Source: Trichodelitschia bisporula
Taxonomy: Eukaryota > Ascomycota > Dothideomycetes > Phaeotrichales > Phaeotrichaceae
DNA length: 64,000 bases
NCBI GenBank assembly: GCA_010356995.1
Contig: ML996697.1
Coordinates: 62,001 to 126,000 of the forward strand
Direction: 5' to 3'
The notes beneath the pieces are model-generated. The model was not told where the DNA came from. It worked only from the letters and a program-made list of their open reading frames with translations, and searched no databases. Below, piece after piece: positions 4,301 through 35,100 of the stretch. The translations under genes were made by a program, and so were the position numbers. The first letter of the stretch is position 1. The number at the start of each line of letters is the position of its first letter.

Positions 4301-7015
4301 TCATCGGAGCTTCAACTCCATCTCCAAGAGGTTGGGGCGCTTGCTCGCCTTCTGAGATGAAGTCTTAGATTTCCCACCCCTGGCGCGTTTAGTCGGTCTC
4401 TCGGCGGGAGTCGCAACTTCCTCGTCCCTGAAGCGCTTTCCTGCCTTCTGAGCCGAAGTCTGAGATTTCTCACCCCTGGCGCGCTTCGTCGGTCTCTCGG
4501 CGGGAGTCGCAGCTTCCTCGTCCCTCGGGCGCTTAGCCGTCTGAATAGGAGCCCCGAGTCGCTCGTTCCGGGAGTGCTTGGCTGATTTCTGAGCAGAAGT
4601 CTCAGCTTTCTCACTGGTAGGCTTGTCACAGGGATCCACGGAGCTCTCCTGAATCGGGCGGGAGCTCTCAGAACCGAGCGACGAGGCCGCAAAACCGAGC
4701 GATGAGGTCGCAGAACCAAGTGTCGAGGCCTCAGAACCGAGCGATGAGGTCTCTACACTGCTCAACCCGTTGTTCGCACCGAACACGCTACCTTTGGAAC
4801 TAGTAGCGCTCTCATTCTCCACGCTCGGAGCGGAGTCGACATCCTTGGAATCCTCAACGCTGGTGAGAGCATTAGGCTGCTGCTTATTCCGCCACTGATT
4901 GAAATGAGCAAGGCTCCTCAGCTTCAGGGCCTTGCCTTTGGCGCGCTTGGGTGCCCGCTCAGTAGGAGTCTTAGTCTCCACACTGCTCAACATAGTGCTC
5001 GCTTTGAACACGCTGTCTTCGGAACCAGTGGCGCTCTCACCCTCCACACCCTGCTCGGGACCGATAAGTGCAGGATTCTCAACGCCAGTGACATCATCAG
5101 GCTGCTGCCCATTCTGTATATGCTTTAGAGAAGCGAGGTCACACATCTCACGATCCAGGAGTTTAGCGCGCTTGGGTGCCCGCTCAGCAGAAATCTCAGC
5201 TTCCTCGTCCCTGGAATGCTTAGCCTCCCTGGACCGGAGTCTCAAATTTTCGGCCGACTTGGGGCCTGTGTCCGTGGCGCTTCCATTGATCGGGCGGGAG
5301 TTCTCAGAACCGAACGATGAGGGCGCGGAGCCGAACGATGAAGGCGCGGAACCGAGCGTCGAGGTCTCAGAACCCAAAGACGAGGCATCCATACTGCTCA
5401 ACCCAGTACTCGCACTGAGCACGTTGGCTTCAGAAGTAGTAGCGTTCCCACTCTCCACACCCGGCGCAGGGTCGACAACTGCGGAATCCTCAACGTTGGC
5501 AACAATATCAGGCTTCTTCCCACTCTCCACAACCGGCTCACGTTCGCCATATGCGTTATACCCAACGCCATAGAAATTATCAGGCCGCCCCCCATTCTGC
5601 AAATGCTTGAGAAGAGCGCGCTCCCGCCTCTTCCGTTTCCAGTCCCTGCCGGGCTTGGGCGGCCGCTGAAAGGGAGTCGAAGCTTCATCGTCGATGAGGA
5701 GCTTGGCTGTCTTTGAAGCAGGAGTCTCAACTTCCTCGCTAGCCGTATGCTTGGTCGGTTTTTGAGCAACAGCCTTAAATTCCGCAGTCAAGGAGCGCTT
5801 GGTCGGCTTCAAGACAATAGTCGGTTCCGGAGCGGGCTTGATCGATTCTGGCGCAGTAGTGGTCGGATTCGGGACAGGCTTGGTCGGCTCTTGAGCGGGC
5901 CCGATCGCCTCTGGCGCAGAATTGGTCGACTCTAGAGCGGGCTTAATGGGCTCTGGAGCGGGCTCAATCGCCTCTGGCATAGGATTGGTTGTCTTTGGGG
6001 CAAGCTCGGCCGGCTCTGGGGCAGGATCGGTCGACTTTAGGACTGGCTTAGTCGGCCCCGTCGCGGCCTCGATCGCCTCTGACGCAGGATCAGTCGTCTT
6101 CGAGGCAGACTCAGTCGGCTGCGGAGCAGGCTCGATCACCTTTGGCACAGGATCCATCGTCTTCTGCGCAGGAACCTTCACTTTCTCGCTGGGACAGTCG
6201 CTGTGAGAGTCCGCGGCCATCGCGAGAAGAAACGCGGCGGCTTCCTCCACGGTGCGCACGCCGGTGCTGGTACTGGTCGCATTGCTCTGGGATAGGGTGT
6301 GGCGCTGATTCCCCATGTCTGAAGCGGGATTGAAGTTTTCCTGATCGTGTACAGCAGTGCTGGTGCTGATAGTGTTGCTCTTAGACCGGGTGCGGCGTTG
6401 ATTCGCCCGGCCCGGCCCGGTGTCGCCATTCACCAGGTCTTCGACGCTGCTGCCAACATCAGGCCGCTCATTGAAATCAGTGAGGAGCTCCATCTCCCGC
6501 TCCAAGAGGTTGGGGCGCAGAGTCGTCGTTTTCGCAGCCATTTTCGCAGCCGTCTTAACTTCCTCATTTTTCGGTCGCTTGTTCGGTCTCTGACTAGCGG
6601 TCTCAATGTCATCGCCTCTGGAGCGCTTCTTCAATTGCTGAGTAGGATTCGGGAGTTCCTTGGCCTCGGTGGGCTTGGTCGCGTTCTCAGCGGGTTTCGC
6701 AGTGTCCGGGGTCGGGTCTTTGGTAGGCTCGGGATGATACCAGGCAGCAAGCCGGGCTTCCTTCGCGAGCCGGTTTGCCTTCTGCTTTGCGATCAGGAAC
6801 TCCTTGCTGTCCAAGACCGAGTGCGGGCCTGCGAGCGTTAGATTTTAATGCTAAGGGGAAGGGGAAGGAGACGAACCATAGCCAGGAGCAAAGCGCAAAG
6901 TGTGCACTGGACCGCCATCATCCGTCGTCACCGCGTCGCCGTCGCGAACAAGAGGCGGCAGATTCTCCGGATCGTATGGCTTGTAATTAGCCGCGAATTT
7001 CTTCGTGCGCGCCAT
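4301..7015 (-). CDS. MARTKK-type disordered repeat protein (888 aa)
   Basis: Exon 1 is 7015-6877 and exon 2 is 6828-4301, with a 48-nt phase-1 intron (GTTCGT...CTAAC...GCAG). The product begins MARTKKFAANYKPY and is basic, disordered and rich in K, R, P, S, T and E. Three kinds of internal repeat are visible. First, a module of the form RLLxREMxxLxxFN...PNxxxSVED recurs four or five times. Second, a P/E/K/T-rich stretch (about residues 270-395) holds variants of PAPEPTKP. Third, there are SSLGSE/STLGS runs and KR-(P/A)-R-(D/G)-EE boxes that resemble nuclear localisation signals. The REM/DFN/SVED module and the MARTKK start are shared with the protein at 16748-18241, so the two are paralogues. 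No enzyme domain is seen. A nuclear role is inference. Confidence 0.7.
5780..6170 (-). repeat. Degenerate P/E/K/T-rich coding minisatellite
   Basis: Inside the preceding gene, variants of PAPEPTKP and EAIEPA repeat about ten times with a loose 7-11 residue period. At DNA level, GGCTC and GGATCGGTCG-like words recur. Confidence 0.65.
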
Positions 7016-7423
7016 CGTGAGATTGTAGAGTTTGTAGCAATGGGAAAGTAGTGGGGGTGAGGGATGTTGGGCGCAAAGTATGGGTAAGGTACAAGAGGGA
7101 GAAAAGGAAGAAATGAACCAGTGGAGAGCTGATTGAGCCATGGGCGGCCTGTGTGCGGTGGTGGAATGAATGTTGGAGCGACGGGCTTGGCGATTGTCTA
7201 GAAATTTCTGTCGGATGTGAGTTTGTGGGGGGGTGGGATGGATGGCCTCCTCCGAGGTGATGCAGAGCGCGCAGAGTCGGGATGAGAAGTAGTGAGCCCA
7301 TCATGTCCCTACTCCAGAACAAGGCAGCGCGAAGCACCCGCACAATAGACGGAAACAGCACCCGCGCAGCAGATCCAGGTACATAACAGCAGGTCCGGAC
7401 ACGCAACAACACTCCTTCAAATC
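7016..7423. other. Upstream region of the MARTKK gene
   Basis: Pyrimidine-rich on the minus strand just before the ATG at 7015. No gene is seen. Confidence 0.4.
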
Positions 7424-8069: not shown

Positions 8070-9430
8070 ATGGCAAAGAGCAAGAGAACCCTCGCCAAAG
8101 CGCCAAAGGGTAGGTCCCCAGAAAGCACATATTCCGTTCAAAGCAAACATAACCACCGCACACAGGCGCCGCGGCCCTTTCGTCCCGCCCCTCCCAGCCC
8201 GCGTCCTTGGACGCCGGCCCAACCGGGCCCATGCCTCGTCTCGCAGCTCGCCATCCGAGCTTGACCATCACCCACCGCGCAGCACAGCGCACCGGGACCA
8301 ATGGCGCTTCGGCGACCGCCCCCTCGGGGCCCGCTTAGGAAGCGGCCCCCCCCCCGTGGAACCGCCGCCCAGGCGTAAAAGGCGTTGCAGCCGGCCGCAT
8401 CTCAAAGAAACGCAAGACCGGGAAAAAGGCCACGGGCCGCGAGGCCGCTCAGGCCGCTAGTGCGCCGGGTGCTAACCAGCTTGAAGGTGACTCTTCCTCG
8501 CCGCCGGCCGAGGGCCTCCCTGCTCCTCCGGACTTTGCGAAGCAGGATCGGCTCGAGCTCGATGGGACGGCCAAGGTGAAGAAGGGCGCGGAGGTCGCGA
8601 CGGCTAGGCCGAGGAGTGACTCGGACGGTGGGGACGTGGATGATTCGCCGCCGGCTGAGGGTCTCCCGGGTCCTCCGTCCTTCGCGAAGAAGGATCGTGT
8701 TGTTTTGCACGAGCTCGGTCAGCACGCCATCACTGGAGTCTCCGCGAACTCGAAGAAGGGCATGGAGCGAGTCGGGTACAACAGCTGGGATATGGTCGAG
8801 GTGTCTCCCGCTTCACTGGCGGGGAATCGCCCTCCTACTCCGGTGCTTGCGAGGAAGCATCGCCCTGCTCAGCCCGAGTTCGGTCAGGCCGCCACCTTGA
8901 AGGTTCCCGTGGAATCGAAGGGCAAGGAGCGCGTCGAGGACAGCCACCAAGAAACTGACGACCTTACTTCGTCTCCGCCGACCGAGGGCTTCCCTCCTCC
9001 TCTGAATTCGAACAAAGGCAAGCAGCGCGCCTCGGACAACCAGGAAATCACCGACCTCACCACCCCACCAACCCCCTCGTCCCTCCCCACCAACTTCCAT
9101 GCGCACACCATCTCCCTCGAGTCCCGCGTCGCACGCCTCGAATCCACGCTCGCCGCTGGCTCTGCCCTGGGCGACGTCGTGTCCAAGATCCGCGCTGGCT
9201 CCGCCCTGGGCGAAGTGGCCTCCAAGCTCGCGTACCTCAATTCACAGAAGTGCATCGACGACATCGATGCCGAGATCAAGTTCAAGAAGGCCAGTCCTCT
9301 TCAAGAGGTTGAGAAGCAGAAGAAGACGGAGGAGGGGGAGAAGGAGGCGAAGCGGATGAAGTTGCGGGATGATAATGAGAGGGAGAGGAAGGAGCGGTGT
9401 AAGAAATATGGCCGTGACGACTTGATCTAG
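8070..9430 (+). CDS. Repeat-rich hypothetical with coiled-coil tail; in-frame TAG
   Basis: Start ATG at 8070 (MAKSKRTLAKAPKG). A phase-1 intron, 8110-8165 (GTAGGT...CATAAC...ACAG), leads into a frame that runs to the TAA-type end at 9430, except for one in-frame TAG at 8336-8338 next to a run of ten C (8346-8355). The downstream part has imperfect ~50-60 residue repeats keyed by SPPAEGLPxPPxFAK and SKKG/SKGKERV. It then has a possible coiled coil (SLESRVARLESTL...) with two copies of a GSALG(D/E)V unit, and a highly charged end. I recognise no domain. The TAG could be a true stop (a 75-residue product), be removed by an unrecognised intron, be a sequence error, or mark a decaying gene. Confidence 0.5.
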
Positions 9431-9866: not shown

Positions 9867-10550
9867 ATGCATCCCTCAATCCTCCTCTTCGCTGCCGCGC
9901 TCCCCCCCCTCTCCCACGCCGCCGCAACCTCAAACTGCTACTGGACCTCACGAATCCAAGAATGGACGCCAGACTGCATGCGGGGCTGTCAAGAAAAGGC
10001 CTACCGTGAGCCGGGTTGCAAATACGAGGACTTCATGTGCCAGTGCAAGCGGCAGAACAAGATGATGGATCTAATGCACGTCTGTATGGAGGACATGAAG
10101 GAGCACCCGTGCAGCAAAGTCGAGATTCGAGGTGCGTGCTGTATATTTCCGACTAGCTGGCTAAGGGCCTTGCTCACTCCCTCAGGCTGGATAGACCTCG
10201 TCGTCCCCCTCTGCGCCCAAATGGCCGGCACGCACGACGCGTGCACGTACGACATCGACCGCCGGGCCGTCAACATCGACCGCCGGCCCACCAACATCAA
10301 CCGCCGGGCTAGCAACACGTCTTCAAGCAGCGGCGACGGAGCATGGGGCGCGCGGATTACGCCTTCGAGTACGGGGACGGTTGCAGTTGTGACCAGTCCG
10401 AGCAGGCCTGGGAATGGGGGTGTGACGGTGGGTACGGTGCCGGCTCCTTCGGATAGCGGGGCGGAGAGGGGAGGGATTAGGTGGACTGTCTTGGTCGGGG
10501 TGGGAGTGGGGGTGGTGATGGGGGGTTTGGGTCTGAATAATAGGGGCTAA
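9867..10550 (+). CDS. CFEM-domain, probably GPI-anchored protein
   Basis: Exons are 9867-10131 and 10186-10550 (209 residues). The 54-nt intron is phase 1 (GTGCGT...CAG) and a multiple of three without a stop, so retention would add 18 residues. A signal peptide (first ~19 residues, cleavage after SHA) is followed by a cysteine pattern typical of CFEM: C...C-x3-C...GCKYEDFMCQC...C...C...C. The CFEM aspartate position is filled by D in KYEDFMC. CFEM proteins act at the fungal surface, some in haem uptake or host interaction. A Ser/Thr/Gly-rich linker follows. It includes three IDRR/INRR repeats and ends in a hydrophobic tail (WTVLVGVGVGVVMGG), as expected for GPI attachment. Specific function unknown. 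Confidence 0.8.
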   Translation: MHPSILLFAAALPPLSHAAATSNCYWTSRIQEWTPDCMRGCQEKAYREPGCKYEDFMCQCKRQNKMMDLMHVCMEDMKEHPCSKVEIRGACCIFPTSWLRALLTPSGWIDLVVPLCAQMAGTHDACTYDIDRRAVNIDRRPTNINRRASNTSSSSGDGAWGARITPSSTGTVAVVTSPSRPGNGGVTVGTVPAPSDSGAERGGIRWTVLVGVGVGVVMGGLGLNNRG

Positions 10551-16747: not shown

Positions 16748-18241
16748 ATGGCGCGCACCAAGAAACCAGCGCGCAAATCCGAGAGCGACATCAGCAGCAC
16801 CAACCCCAATAAGCGCACTGGGAGAGACTCTTCATCCTCGTTCGTTCTTGAGAGCTCTCACTCGTTTAGCTCTCCCTCAATTGAGGAGAGCTCCGACTCC
16901 GAGCGCCACCGTACCGGCAAGAACCGCAAAACCTCTATTCGGAGAGTGCCTAAGCCCCCCAGGTTCGCTTTTGATAGCTCTTCCCGGCCGAGCGCCCCCC
17001 CGATTGACGAGAGCTCCGACGACTCTGAGTGCGACCCTACCGACGAGAGAGTTGAAAACTCTGCTCGGAGGGCGACTAACCGCCCTAGATTCGTTGCTGA
17101 GAGCTCCGAGGACTCCGAGCGCCACCCTGCTGGCAAGAATGGTAAACATTCTGCTCGGGGGGCGACTAAGCGCCCCAGGTCCGTTCTTGAGAGCTCTCCT
17201 TCAGCAAACTCCCCCCCGATTAAGGAGAACTCCGAGGACTCTGAGCGCCACCCTACCAACAAGAAAGGTAAAACATCCGTTCAGAGGGCGACTAAGCGCC
17301 CCAGGCTCGTCGCTGAGAGCTCTCCTTCGCCAAATTCCCCCCCAATTGAGAAGAGCTTCCACCGCCCGAGCCCCAGCCCGATTGAGAGGGGCTTCCCCCG
17401 CCCGAGCCCCAGCCCAATTGAGAGGGGCTTCCCCCGCCCGAGCCCCCGCCCGATTGAGAGGAGCTTCTCCCGCCCGGGCCCCCGTCCCATTGAGAATAGG
17501 CCTTCCCGCCCAAACCCCCGCCCGAGCCCCCGCCCGACTGAGGAGAGCTCCGAGGACTCTGAGTGCCACCCTACCGGCAATAAAGTCAAAGCCTCTGCTG
17601 GCAAGGCGACTAAGCGCCCCACGTTCGTACCTGAGAGCTCTCCCCCGCCGAGCTCCGAGGACACTGAGCGCCACCCTACCGACAAGAAATTCAACCCCTC
17701 TGCCCGGAGGGTGACTAAGCGCCGCAGGGACGAAGAAGATGGGACTCCCGATAAGAAGGCGAGCAAGCGATCCAGACTGGCCCGAGAGATGGAGAACTTG
17801 GCGGATTTCAATGAGTGGCCGGAGGGACAGGGGCCCAATGCTATCGACAGTGTTGAGGATTCTCCCCCGCCGAACTCCTCGGACTCTGAGCCCCGCCCTC
17901 CCAGCAAGAAAGCCAAACCCTCTGCCCGGAGGGCAACTAAACGCCGCAGGGACGAAGAAAATGGGACTCCCGCTAAGAAGGCGAGCAGGCGATCCAGATT
18001 AGCGCGAGAGATGAACAACCTCGCGGATTTCAATGAGTGGCCGGAGGGGCACGGGTCCAATGTTATCGGGAGTGTTGAGGATCCCATAGCCGTCGACAAT
18101 GCTCCGGACGGAGGGAGGCGGCACACTACCAGCACGGCCGGTCGTGATCCCAGCACGTCACCTCTGACTGCGGCGGTTATACGTGCTTTGGTGGATGAGT
18201 CTCGGGGACTGCGCAGCTCTAGACGCTCGCGTCGCGACTGA
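16748..18241 (+). CDS. MARTKK-type repeat protein with histone-H3-like N-terminus (497 aa)
   Basis: Single exon from the ATG at 16748 to TGA. The N-terminus is MARTKKPARKSESD. After Met removal, its first ten residues match the histone H3 tail (ARTKQTARKS) at eight positions, keeping the H3 K4, R8, K9 and S10 equivalents. The body is a chain of ~40-residue units with the pattern ESS...PIEESSEDSERHP...KK.K.SARRATKRPR. It includes a run of ~12-residue RPSPSPIER repeats (17350-17545). Two near-identical copies of a module, SRLAREM(E/N)NLADFNEWPEG...SVED, lie near residues 340 and 425. This module links it to the protein at 4301-7015. It is strongly basic with many KR boxes, so nuclear location is likely. 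No catalytic domain; the function is not known. Confidence 0.75.
   Translation: MARTKKPARKSESDISSTNPNKRTGRDSSSSFVLESSHSFSSPSIEESSDSERHRTGKNRKTSIRRVPKPPRFAFDSSSRPSAPPIDESSDDSECDPTDERVENSARRATNRPRFVAESSEDSERHPAGKNGKHSARGATKRPRSVLESSPSANSPPIKENSEDSERHPTNKKGKTSVQRATKRPRLVAESSPSPNSPPIEKSFHRPSPSPIERGFPRPSPSPIERGFPRPSPRPIERSFSRPGPRPIENRPSRPNPRPSPRPTEESSEDSECHPTGNKVKASAGKATKRPTFVPESSPPPSSEDTERHPTDKKFNPSARRVTKRRRDEEDGTPDKKASKRSRLAREMENLADFNEWPEGQGPNAIDSVEDSPPPNSSDSEPRPPSKKAKPSARRATKRRRDEENGTPAKKASRRSRLAREMNNLADFNEWPEGHGSNVIGSVEDPIAVDNAPDGGRRHTTSTAGRDPSTSPLTAAVIRALVDESRGLRSSRRSRRD
17350..17545 (+). repeat. Coding tandem repeat, ~36-bp unit
   Basis: Units encode (S/G)F(H/P/S)RPSPSPIER-like 12-mers, about five in a row, with recent near-identity between the second and third. 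Confidence 0.8.
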
Positions 18242-19333: not shown

Positions 19334-19602
19334 TGGCTCCCCCCCCCACGCTTAGCACAACACTTCGCAAACTGGCCATGATCGACAGTATTATCCAGCG
19401 GGCCAGCATAACCCTGGCATAGCTTAGTCAACTCATTTTAATACGCCTTTTGCCTAACCGCCGCGCAGCAGTCCTTGGTGATCTGGTGGTTGGCACCACC
19501 GTGGCCGGACGTTTGGTACGTGCACCAGGCTGGGCCGCTGAGGAGGGCGGTGGGACCGGCGAGGGCGAGGGTAAAGAAGAGGAGGATGTAGGCGAAAAAC
19601 AT
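19334..19602 (-). pseudogene. Broken paralogue of the small secreted cysteine-rich protein
   Basis: Reads on the minus strand from the ATG at 19602. A signal peptide (MFFAYILLFFTLALAG) is followed by a mature part homologous to the gene at 19946-20287. The same cysteine landmarks are present (PAWCT, a CC pair, a single C, then FAKCC). The copy looks broken, with about one interruption, and also differs in its C-terminal end. Its upstream region is alike to that of the whole copy, so gene and promoter were duplicated together. Confidence 0.6.
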
Positions 19603-19945
19603 GTTTGGAGGTCCGGTAAGGAGATGTGGCCGTAGGTGATGATGATGATTTTACTGGTGGAGTCTGGCGGCCTTTATCCACTCCTTCGCTTCACAGCATC
19701 CCTTCACAGACACTCTTCACAGCCTGCGCGTAAAGTGCAGCCCGCACGCGTTACCGCGCACAAGATATCGCAGCTCTCAGATCCGTCAACCCTTCCGAGA
19801 ATGTGCTTTCGATTCCATGGGATATCAATACTCACACCGCCCATCCCAGCTCGTCAAGTATCCCAAGCCCCCTCCGCCTTCCCGCGCACCCATTTCCATC
19901 ACCGCGATACGCAGCCCCCATCCCAGTCCCGTCTCAAAGTCCCCA

Positions 19946-20287
19946 TCATCCACCGCCCGTCACACTCCCATCACTCCAAACAACTGTCCCACCGCTCCCC
20001 CCGTCTTTCTTGCAGCACTTAGCGAAGCCGACGTAGTCGATATCCTTGGTCCCGGACCCGAGACCCTCGTGGCCCATGCACTCCACATATGTCGAGTTAT
20101 AGTGCGCCTTGCGCTTCACCGTTGTACAACAATGTTTGGTTTTCTGGCGGTTGGGTCTGTACAGCCCGGCTTTGTCGTCGGTGCACCAGGCTGGGCTGCC
20201 GCCGATGGTGGTGGGCTTTGGTTTCGCTGACTTGGCGGGTCTCGCGAGCGCGACGGTGGCGAAGAGGAGGATGTAGGCGAAATGCAT
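19946..20287 (-). CDS. Small secreted cysteine-rich protein (113 aa)
   Basis: Single exon from the ATG at 20287. A signal peptide (MHFAYILLFATVALARPAKS) precedes a ~93-residue mature domain. Its six cysteines are in the order C, CC, C, CC (PAWCTDD, KHCCT, VECMG, FAKCCKK), consistent with three disulphides. The end is Gly/Val-rich. This layout is common among uncharacterised small secreted proteins of plant-associated and saprobic ascomycetes. It is distinct from hydrophobins, which have eight cysteines. A role at the cell exterior is likely and anything more exact would be a guess. A broken sister copy lies just downstream. Confidence 0.7.
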   Translation of the reverse strand: MHFAYILLFATVALARPAKSAKPKPTTIGGSPAWCTDDKAGLYRPNRQKTKHCCTTVKRKAHYNSTYVECMGHEGLGSGTKDIDYVGFAKCCKKDGGSGGTVVWSDGSVTGGG

Positions 20288-20440
20288 CGTTAGAGGTAAG
20301 GGAGACGTGATTGTTGGTGATGATGATTCTACCCGCGGAACTGGCGGCTTTATCCACCCCTCCGCTTCACAGCATACTCTTCACAGCCCGCGCGCAAAGT
20401 GAACCTTACACATATCGCTGCGTTTGAGATATTGTAGCCC

Positions 20441-32177: not shown

Positions 32178-35100
32178 CTACAACCACCGCCGCTTCCACC
32201 CGCCTGGAATCCCCACTCCACCACCACCTTCACTGGTCGACGTCGACGCGCTGCTGCCGCTCGACCTGGACGGCGGATCCACCGTCACTGTCACTGTAAC
32301 TGGCGTCGGGCAATTCGATGGGAGCGAGAAGGTATCCGACGCTGATGAGGATGTCGTGTCGGACGCAGTGTCAGACGCCGAAGTGCTGGTGGCCGTGTCC
32401 GATGCCGATGTGCTGGTGGCTGTGTCCGAGGCCGTGTCCGTCGCCGATGTGCTCGTCGGCGTGGCGGTGGGGTTGCTAACCGTGCTCGCCGGCGACGCGG
32501 TGTCGCCCGAGCTCGTGGCGGATGAGCTATCGGTGGCGCTGCTGTCGGAGGCCGTGGTGGTGGTGGTCGTGGCGCTGTCCGTTGCAGAGGAGGAGTCCGT
32601 TGCAGACGAGCCCGTTGCAGACGAATCCGTTGCAGAGGAGGAGTCCGTTGCAGACGAGCCTGTTGCAGACGAGGAGTCCGTTGCAGAGGAGGAGTCCGTT
32701 GCAGACGAGCCTGTTGCAGACGAGGAGTCCATCACAGAGGAGGAGTCCGTTGCAGACGAGCCCGTTGCAGACGAGGAGTCTGTAGCAGACGATGAGCTCT
32801 GCTCAGACGCGGTACTATCCGAGCTTGTCGAGCTCGAAGCGCTTGAAGCTACAGACGACGAGGATGTACTTGCTGAGCTAGTCGCAGAGTCCGAGGAGCT
32901 AGCTGATGAGCTCTCCGACGAGCTTGCCGAGGAACTGGTCGAAGAGCTGGTTGGGGCGGACGAGATGCTCGAGGAGCTCGTCGATGCCGATGAACTTGCC
33001 GAGCTGCTTGAATTGGTTGACGAATCGACTGACGAGCTTTGCGAACTTGAGGTACTCGAAGCTGCCGACGAGAACGTGGTGGCAGAGGGGCTCTCCGACG
33101 AGCTCGCCGACGAGCTGATTGAGCTGGCCGACGAGCTGATCGAGGAGCTTGCGGACGAGCCGGTCGAGGAGCTTACGGACGAGCTTTCCGAGGAACTGGT
33201 AGAGCTAGACGGGGCGGACAACCTAGCCGACGAGCTTCGTGGAGGAGCCAGCAGAAGAGCTAGGAGAAGAGCTGGCCGACGAGGTATCGCTGGAACCCGC
33301 TGAAGAACTCGTGGACGAGCTAGCAGGAGTGCGGGTCGATGAGCTTGCCGCGGAGCTAGTGGATGAGCTGGCCGAGGAACTGGCGGATGAGCTCGTCGAC
33401 GAACTGGCGGACACGGTATCTGAGGAGCTCGCCGAAGAACTCGTGGAGGAGCTTTCAGAGGAGCTAGTGGATGAGGTTGGGGGGGGGGTGGCTGACGAGC
33501 TGGAAGAAGAGCTGGTCGACAAGCTGACCGAAGAGCTCGAGGATAAGCTTGTCGACGAACTAGCTAACGCAGTATCGGAAGAGCTCGCCGAAGAACTCGT
33601 GGAGGAGCTAGCTGATGAGCTGGTCGACGATCTGGCAGGTGAGCTGGTCGACGAGCTAGCAGAAGAGCTGGTCGACGAGCTGGCAGATGAGCTTGAAGGT
33701 GAGCTTGTCGACGAACTAGCGGACGCAGTATCGGAAGAGCTCGCCGAAGAACTCGTGAAAGAGCTAGCAGACGAGTTGGTCGAAGAGCTCGCGGATGAGC
33801 TGCTCGAGGTGCTTGCAGATGAACTGACAGACGAGCTTATGGAGGAGCTGGCAGACGAGCTTGTGGAGGAGCTAGTCGACGAAATGGCAGAGGCGGTATC
33901 CGAAGAACTGGCCGAGGAGCTGGTCGAGGAGCTTGCTGACGAGCTCGTGAATGAGCTAGCGGATGAACTCGTGAATGAGCTAGCGGATGAACTCGTCGAA
34001 GAGCTTGCAGATGAACCGGCAGACGAGCTGGTCGGCGAGCTGGTCGACAAACTTGCGGACGAGCTCGTTGACGAACTAGCGGACGCGGTATCTGAGGAAC
34101 TTGTGGAGGAGCTAGCAAATGAGCTCGTGGAACTCGCCAAGGAGCTGGTCGAGGAGCTGGTCGACGAACTTGCTGGCGAACTGGTTGACAAACTAGCGGA
34201 TGAGCTCGTGGAACTCGCCGATGAACTGGCCGAGGAGCCGGTCGAGGAGCTAGCAGAAGAGCTTGTAGATGAGCTTGTAGACGAGCTGATCGAAGCGCTG
34301 GTCGAGGAGCTGGTGGAAGAACTTGTAGGCGAGCTTGTTGACGAGCTTGCGGAAGCACTGGTTGAGGAGCTGGTAGAAGAACTTGTAGGCGAGCTTGTGG
34401 ACGAGCTGGTCGAAGAGCTGGCCGAGGAACTTGTTGACGAGCTCGTCGATGAACTGGTCGAGGAACTTGCTGACGAGCTTGTCGACGAACTTGAAGATGT
34501 TGGAGACGATGTCGAAGATGACGAGGATGATGAAGTCGAAATAGATGAAGAAATTGGAGAAGACGTCGAAGATGATGAAGACGAAGATGAAGATGAAGAT
34601 GAAGAAGACGACAATGAAGACGAAGAAGATGAGGACGAGGAGGACGACGAAGAAGATGAAGACGACGAGGCCGAAGACGCAGTTGTCGATAACGGGTTGT
34701 CACTAACGTTGCCGATAAGCCACCCACTGTGTACATTGGCCGCCGCCTTCGGCAGCCCGCTGCCCCCCTTCTAGAAGCACGAGGCACCCGACGCCACGGA
34801 CGATGAATAGACAGCAACACTGCAGCCCGTCAAGGTGTAATTAGCCGAGCAGCGCTCCATGCACGTCGTCAAGTTGGTCGACGGGAAAGTCGTCGACAAT
34901 CCCTGGTACTGCAGCGCGGGAAGCGTACTGTCGACCGAGTATTTGACCTGGAAGATCTGGTTGTCGGACGTCGTATAGTAACTCGAGTTCGAGTAACCCC
35001 AGCATGTTGTCGTTTGCCGTACCCCCTTGTTGCTGACGTGTCCAAGGAGCCGAACTTGTTTTCGATCTCCGCCCGCTTTTGGGGCGTGATGCCCAGTTCT

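What the first reader, a model, noticed from the sequence alone, without database searches (positions are those of the whole stretch)
16748..18241. Histone H3 tail mimic at the N-terminus of a repeat protein
After Met removal the protein starts ARTKKPARKS; histone H3 starts ARTKQTARKS. Eight of ten residues agree, including the equivalents of H3 K4, R8, K9 and S10, the sites read and modified by chromatin enzymes. A free ARTK N-terminus is what PHD fingers and WDR5-type proteins bind. The rest of the protein is basic, disordered and NLS-rich, unlike a histone. Either the protein competes for H3-tail readers or the match is a by-product of its basic composition; the position at the very N-terminus argues against chance.
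Basis: partly seen in the sequence, partly recalled or inferred. Interest (0 to 1): 0.8.

Follow-up and report, generated by a model that had tools for sequence, protein, structure and literature searches.

The report
Fungal repeat protein resembling histone H3
A fast-changing, unstructured protein from what looks like a fungus starts with almost the same ten amino acids as histone H3, and a sister gene near by keeps only the first half of that match, so a working imitation of H3 is possible but an inherited basic leader plus coincidence is more likely.

Summary
Window 16748-18241 (+) is an open frame of 497 aa that begins MARTKKPARKS and matches H3 residues 1-10 at 8 of 10 positions. Composition does not explain it: shuffling residues 2-11 reaches 8 matches in 1.5e-5 of trials, and ARTKxxARK is encoded at one place in the 25.65 Mb genome, here (control 1).

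A related repeat gene 10 kb away (minus strand) reads MARTKKFAANYK: ARTKK-A is kept, ARKS is not, and an in-frame ATG 42 codons upstream leaves its true start open. A UAA-family transporter in the same genome starts MARTKPTAVYR, 6 of 10, so an N-terminal ARTK can arise where H3 mimicry is implausible. Copies of the body's repeats differ at all three codon positions without an excess at the third.

Best reading: a lineage-restricted, disordered, basic, probably nuclear repeat protein with an inherited basic leader; the ARKS half is most likely coincidence. A true ARTK mimic acting on PHD, WDR5, BIR or LSD1-type readers stays open (about 0.18). No other eukaryotic genome was held, so orthologues are untested.

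The parts
16748..18241 (+). Open frame of 497 aa, the H3-like repeat protein (P0001)
   Evidence: no Pfam family at E<=0.1; no PDB chain at E<=10
16748..16780 (+). Codons 1-11, MARTKKPARKS; 8 of 10 residues after Met identical to H3 residues 1-10
16869..17983 (+). Seven degenerate copies of a 128-nt unit, start-to-start spacings 126, 90, 126, 318, 105, 222, all multiples of 3
17305..17520 (+). Five overlapping 72-nt copies stepping by 36 nt (proline-rich 12-residue repeat)
17632..18075 (+). Two 222-nt copies (85%) with the LAREM-NLADFNEWPEG block shared with the paralogue; two of three helices of an unconfident model (residues 336-354, 411-429) lie here
6877..7015 (-). Exon 1 of the neighbouring paralogue if it starts at MARTKKFAANYKPYD; an in-frame ATG 42 codons upstream (7139-7141) is an alternative start
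6992..7015 (-). Codons MARTKKFA of the paralogue: 7 of 8 residues as in P0001; 5 of 6 shared non-Met codons identical
6829..6876 (-). 48-nt intron of the paralogue (GT...CTAAC...CAG), called by eye
4301..6828 (-). Exon 2 of the paralogue (open to a stop at 4301-4303; a further 3' intron is possible)

Best explanation
This is a lineage-restricted, fast-evolving, intrinsically disordered and probably nuclear repeat protein of what looks like a fungus. It is one of two related genes lying about 10 kb apart in opposite orientation. Both share a short basic block, ARTKK-A, which happens to equal the first four residues of H3 plus A7. In this copy the next residues RKS extend the resemblance to 8 of 10, most likely by coincidence in a basic protein. 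Likely mechanism (inferred): repeats alternating between Ser/Glu-rich and Lys/Arg-rich stretches make a flexible charge-based scaffold for nucleic acid or other nuclear proteins, with the basic leader as one more contact, not an H3 decoy. Shown: open frame and start, match, homology to the neighbour, repeats, divergence of repeats without excess at third codon positions, no Pfam domain. Inferred: disorder (composition and an unconfident model), nuclear location, charge-based binding, absence of reader binding, restriction to the lineage (no relatives could be searched among eukaryotes).
For: The paralogue (31% identity over 147 aligned positions, E 8e-12) keeps ARTKK-A and not ARKS. In seven partly overlapping pairs of repeat copies of P0001, differences at codon positions 1/2/3 show no excess at position 3 (for example 11/12/11 and 18/15/17), so residues drift, while all unit spacings stay multiples of 3. 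76% of residues are disorder-promoting and the protein lies on the disordered side of the charge-hydropathy line (formula recalled); AlphaFold2 mean pLDDT is 44.8 on a single sequence. No Pfam family at E<=0.1. Bipartite NLS-like strings start at residues 313 and 387 (my own expression). A UAA-family transporter in the same genome starts ARTKPTA: coincidental N-terminal ARTK occurs. Two other family fragments, at C2:394 kb and C3:901 kb, have no MARTK start near them.
Against: An 8 of 10 match is very unlikely from composition. The leader is the one collinear stretch seen at the two N-termini: 7 of the first 8 residues agree and none of residues 9-15, which may mean constraint on exactly the residues that H3 readers need. 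The N-terminus does not align to the protein's own repeats better than shuffles do (66% of shuffles reach the score), so it is not simply a worn repeat. CK2-type sites are no denser than in shuffles (16 against a mean of 15.5), so the scaffold idea has no support beyond composition.
Confidence: 0.6

Rival explanations
1. True N-terminal H3-tail mimic. After Met removal the free A-R-T-K end enters H3-tail pockets (PHD fingers, WDR5-type WD40, the BIR domain of a Survivin/Bir1 protein, or the active-site cleft of an LSD1-type demethylase) and recruits or blocks these readers; the K4 and K9 equivalents may be methylated.
For: 8 of 10 match at the start of the open frame, not explained by composition; ARTKK-A retained in a diverged paralogue. 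The genome encodes BIR domains at one locus (2 matches) and 4 SWIRM-domain places, so candidate reader types exist; which of them are Bir1 or LSD1 was not determined. Precedent: SNAG peptides mimic the H3 tail in the LSD1 cleft (PMC5896174, passages); the hSgol1 N-terminus mimics phosphorylated H3 for the Survivin BIR (PMC5711809, passages); two aspartates of the BAZ2B PHD are crucial for binding H3 at R2, a residue present here (PMC5663869, passages).
Against: ARKS is not retained in the paralogue. The paralogue has an in-frame ATG in good context 42 codons upstream, so its ARTK may be internal. 5 of 6 shared leader codons are identical, against 22 of 43 in the longest body alignment, so recent shared descent is as good a reason as constraint. 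A membrane transporter shows the same ARTK start. ARKS alone can mislead: in ADNP a methylated ARKS peptide did not bind HP1, although mutating that lysine did reduce HP1 interaction (PMC3022755, passages). No orthologue tested.
Confidence: 0.18
2. Nucleolar phospho-scaffold working like Nopp140/SRP40: acidic serine stretches phosphorylated by CK2 alternate with basic stretches.
For: Repeats alternate ESSEDSE-type and SARRATKRPR-type stretches; net charge of successive 15-residue blocks ranges from -6 to +6.
Against: CK2-type sites at shuffled density; no Pfam match at E<=0.1, hence no SRP40 C-terminal domain found.
Confidence: 0.1
3. The start or the gene is wrong: an upstream exon precedes the ATG, or the frame is not translated, so ARTK is never a free N-terminus.
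For: Two other frames over parts of the same stretch are also open for 288 and 291 codons; repeat copies show no protein-level conservation; 23 open codons lie upstream of the ATG; in the paralogue 95 codons upstream are open and hold an in-frame ATG.
Against: All unit spacings are multiples of 3; CACAATGG context; the paralogue has an ATG at the same place in the shared block.
Confidence: 0.1

Closest known systems
Histone H3 N-terminal tail
   Same: ARTK and ARKS at residues 1-4 and 7-10 after Met removal
   Different: No histone fold (no Pfam hit); match stops after residue 10; codons GCG CGC ACC AAG against GCT CGT ACC AAG in this genome's H3, whose R8 codon is split by an intron that is absent here
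SNAG-domain H3 mimics of LSD1 (SNAI1, GFI1)
   Same: Short peptide acting as a mimic of the H3 N-terminal tail (PMC5896174, passages); that SNAG is N-terminal is recalled
   Different: SNAG proteins named there are transcription repressors; no Pfam domain found here; the SNAG consensus itself was not compared
hSgol1 N-terminus (H3 mimic for the Survivin BIR)
   Same: N-terminus imitating H3 (PMC5711809, passages)
   Different: No Pfam family hit here; no binding tested
ADNP ARKS motif
   Same: ARKS in a non-histone nuclear protein
   Different: Internal, in a homeodomain; its methylated peptide did not bind HP1, though the lysine contributes to HP1-dependent association (PMC3022755, passages)
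Nopp140/SRP40
   Same: Disordered, alternating acidic-serine and basic stretches (architecture recalled)
   Different: No SRP40 C-terminal domain found; CK2-type sites at shuffled density

Membership tests
Histone H3 family (PF00125) | Histone fold | tested here: not met
   0 Pfam families at E<=0.1
Histone H3 family (PF00125) | Descent of the tail from an H3 gene | tested here: inconclusive
   Leader codons differ from H3's at A1 and R2, and the H3 intron in R8 is absent; ten codons are too few to exclude an old capture
N-terminal H3-tail mimic | A-R-T-K at the very N-terminus of the open frame | tested here: met
   Only early Met, in-frame stop upstream; start not confirmed by transcripts
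N-terminal H3-tail mimic | ARTK kept at the N-terminus of homologues | tested here: inconclusive
   The sequence is kept in the paralogue, but an in-frame ATG 42 codons upstream leaves its start open; two other fragments have no MARTK start near them; orthologues not held
N-terminal H3-tail mimic | ARKS kept in homologues | tested here: not met
   Paralogue reads A-A-N-Y at H3 positions 7-10
N-terminal H3-tail mimic | Binding to or modification by H3 readers and writers | not testable with these tools
   Needs peptides or cells
Nopp140/SRP40 | SRP40 C-terminal domain | tested here: not met
   0 Pfam families at E<=0.1
Nopp140/SRP40 | Enriched CK2-type sites | tested here: not met
   16 sites against a mean of 15.5 in 300 shuffles

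The most novel reading that the evidence does not exclude
A pair of lineage-specific fungal repeat genes encodes free N-terminal ARTK tails that compete with histone H3 for the cell's own H3-tail readers. The residues that readers need are constrained while the rest of the protein drifts almost neutrally, and one copy has extended the mimic to include the K9 site.
Probability: 0.17. Interest if true: 0.75.

Novelty: new member of a known kind. Interest (0 to 1): 0.35.

Why it matters
If the leader is read as H3, this would be an N-terminal histone mimic made by a fungus to act on its own chromatin readers, with a built-in comparison: one copy with ARTK plus ARKS and one with ARTK alone. If not, it is a clear example of how a short, famous tail can recur in basic disordered proteins, and of how a paralogue and an unrelated transporter in the same genome can temper such a claim.

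Tried and rejected
Leader as a worn copy of the protein's own SARRATKRPR repeat: rejected; the alignment score is reached by 66% of shuffles.

Leader captured from the H3 gene: no support; codons differ at A1 and R2 and the match crosses the place of the H3 intron.

More family members: the LADFNEW/R-type motif occurs at 4 places (control 1), 3 in the two genes and 1 in a frame that looks unrelated by eye. Protein searches gave two fragments at C2 and C3 without a MARTK start near them, plus a Pro/Ser-rich match at C3:1720 kb that I take for chance.

Relatives elsewhere: none in genome contigs (43 pattern matches, 0 confirmed) or viral contigs (6 matches, 0 confirmed); these hold prokaryotes and viruses, so this says little.

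Subtelomeric position: of 1,500 bases fetched from the end of the 1.0 Mb contig I read 300; no telomere repeat seen by eye.

The third basic protein between the two genes (start at 8070, MAKSKRTLAKAPKG): its 284-codon body frame is not homologous by BLASTP (best E 0.15).

Literature: searches (3 papers, 3 listed; 1, 1; 74, 20 listed; 16, 12 listed; 55, 12 listed) showed me no fungal protein with an N-terminal ARTK mimic; I saw titles and starts of abstracts, and passages of the papers named in this report. The library is open-licence PubMed Central only. PMC11624362 (passages) holds ARTK only as an H3 peptide.

I lowered the mimic reading from 0.22 to 0.18 and the novel case from 0.20 to 0.17, and raised 'wrong start' from 0.08 to 0.10 for that reason.

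Full report
What is there. Window 16748-18241 (+) is one open frame of 497 aa. The window lies at 62001-126000 of contig C11 in a 25.65 Mb, 30-contig genome. Short introns, a CFEM domain and an H3 gene with introns point to a filamentous fungus (inference); no species name was available. The ATG sits in CACAATGG, an in-frame stop lies 24 codons upstream with no ATG between, and the next in-frame Met is residue 348. MetAP removal of Met before Ala is recalled knowledge, not tested.

The match. Residues 2-11 are ARTKKPARKS, identical to H3 at 8 of 10. Controls give 2e-8 (iid, own composition), 1.5e-5 (order of the same ten residues) and 0 of 200,000 (residues 2-31). No other 10-mer of the protein exceeds 4 matches. 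In 1,141 distinct ATG frames of at least 60 codons from the window and the loci then held, the scores were 8 (this one), 6 (one), 4 (four) and 3 or fewer for the rest; 20 of those loci had been fetched because they match the MARTK pattern, and shorter frames were dropped. Genome-wide, ARTKxxARK is encoded once in six frames, with 1 control match. A look-elsewhere correction over many windows and many famous tails was not possible.

Other ARTK starts in the genome. The pattern ATG-A-[R/S]-T-K occurs 20 times, control 8; 16 read MARTK and 4 MASTK. By what follows, I judge four of the 16 to be gene starts: H3 itself, P0001, the neighbour (with the reservation below) and a transporter. The other 12 were judged by eye from frame length and context and not modelled. 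The transporter (C9) reads MARTKPTAVYRTPSDL, and its second exon is a UAA-family transporter (PF08449, E 1.1e-41); HUT1 is a recalled name. ATG-A-[R/S]-T-K-x-x-A occurs at 6 places with 0 control matches; they include the same four.

The paralogue. On the minus strand, with its ATG at 7015, a gene reads MARTKKFAANYKPYD; a 48-nt intron (6829-6876, called by eye) separates this from a long exon 2. It shares repeat blocks with P0001 (31% over 147 aligned positions, E 8e-12; three further pieces at 39-48%). The leaders agree at 7 of the first 8 residues and at none of residues 9-15; P0001 residues 14-188 align weakly to paralogue residues 710-882, far from its N-terminus (E 0.013). At H3 positions 8-10 the paralogue has A-N-Y; A7 is kept. 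Its match to H3 is 5 of 10, and its alignment score to the H3 tail is reached by 12% of shuffles. Five of six shared leader codons are identical, against 22 of 43, 10 of 25, 8 of 19 and 8 of 15 in body alignments; six codons cannot separate constraint from recent common descent.

A reservation on the paralogue. Upstream of its MARTK, 95 codons are open and an in-frame ATG in good context (GCCCATGG) lies 42 codons before. The stretch between is 72% C+T, as a 5' untranslated leader would be, and P0001 has no such alternative, so I keep MARTK as the likelier start; but the paralogue's ARTK may be internal.

The body. Repeat units of P0001 have spacings that are all multiples of 3 (126, 90, 126, 318, 105, 222 and 36 among others). 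In seven partly overlapping pairs of copies the differences at codon positions 1/2/3 were 11/12/11, 18/15/17, 11/10/11, 8/10/9, 4/0/2, 12/9/13 and 7/9/4: the frame is kept while the residues drift. The protein is Ser, Arg and Pro rich, net charge +26 (paralogue +3), 76% disorder-promoting, with no 19-residue stretch above a mean hydropathy of 0.46. AlphaFold2 on the single sequence gave mean pLDDT 44.8 and three helices (336-354, 411-429, 472-487), two of them in the block shared with the paralogue. No Pfam or PDB relative was found.

Weighing. For mimicry: an extreme match at the start of the frame, A-R-T-K present in a diverged paralogue inside an otherwise drifting protein, and candidate reader types in the genome (4 SWIRM places and BIR domains at one locus; which are LSD1 or Bir1 was not determined). 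Against: the ARKS half fails in the only homologue with a readable start, and that start is itself uncertain; an unrelated membrane protein shares the ARTK start; in ADNP an ARKS motif mattered for HP1 association but its methylated peptide did not bind HP1 (PMC3022755, passages). I put the inherited-leader-plus-coincidence reading at 0.6 and real mimicry at 0.18.

Limits. No other eukaryotic genome was held (one search states that this genome has no relatives there); scans of prokaryote and virus collections confirmed nothing.

Noticed in passing
window 8070-9430 (+): A third basic, repeat-containing protein between the two MARTK genes; reads MAKSKRTLAKAPKG followed by a likely intron (by eye), with repeats of the SPPAEGLPGPPSFAKKDR type; body frame not homologous by BLASTP.
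   Followed up: partly
G000 C2:394095-394382 (L034, L039) and C3:900888-901229 (L035, L040): Scattered fragments resembling the paralogue's proline- and KPTKRSLT-rich repeat region, 61% and 53% identical, in other contexts and without a MARTK start near them.
   Followed up: partly
window 33239-34774 (+): 511-aa open frame that hits 29 Pfam families (best DUF445, 5.8e-15), perhaps a long amphipathic-helix repeat protein; another 463-aa frame lies antisense.
   Followed up: no
window 9867-10550 (+): CFEM-domain protein just above Pfam's cut-off (22.2 against 22 bits).
   Followed up: no
window 19549-19612 and 20234-20297: Two 64-nt copies at 78% identity, 685 bases apart; the surrounding genes were not worked out.
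   Followed up: no
G000 C5:479935 (L003, L016): The histone H3 gene has an intron inside the R8 codon, so the first exon encodes MARTKQTA plus one base (read by eye).
   Followed up: yes
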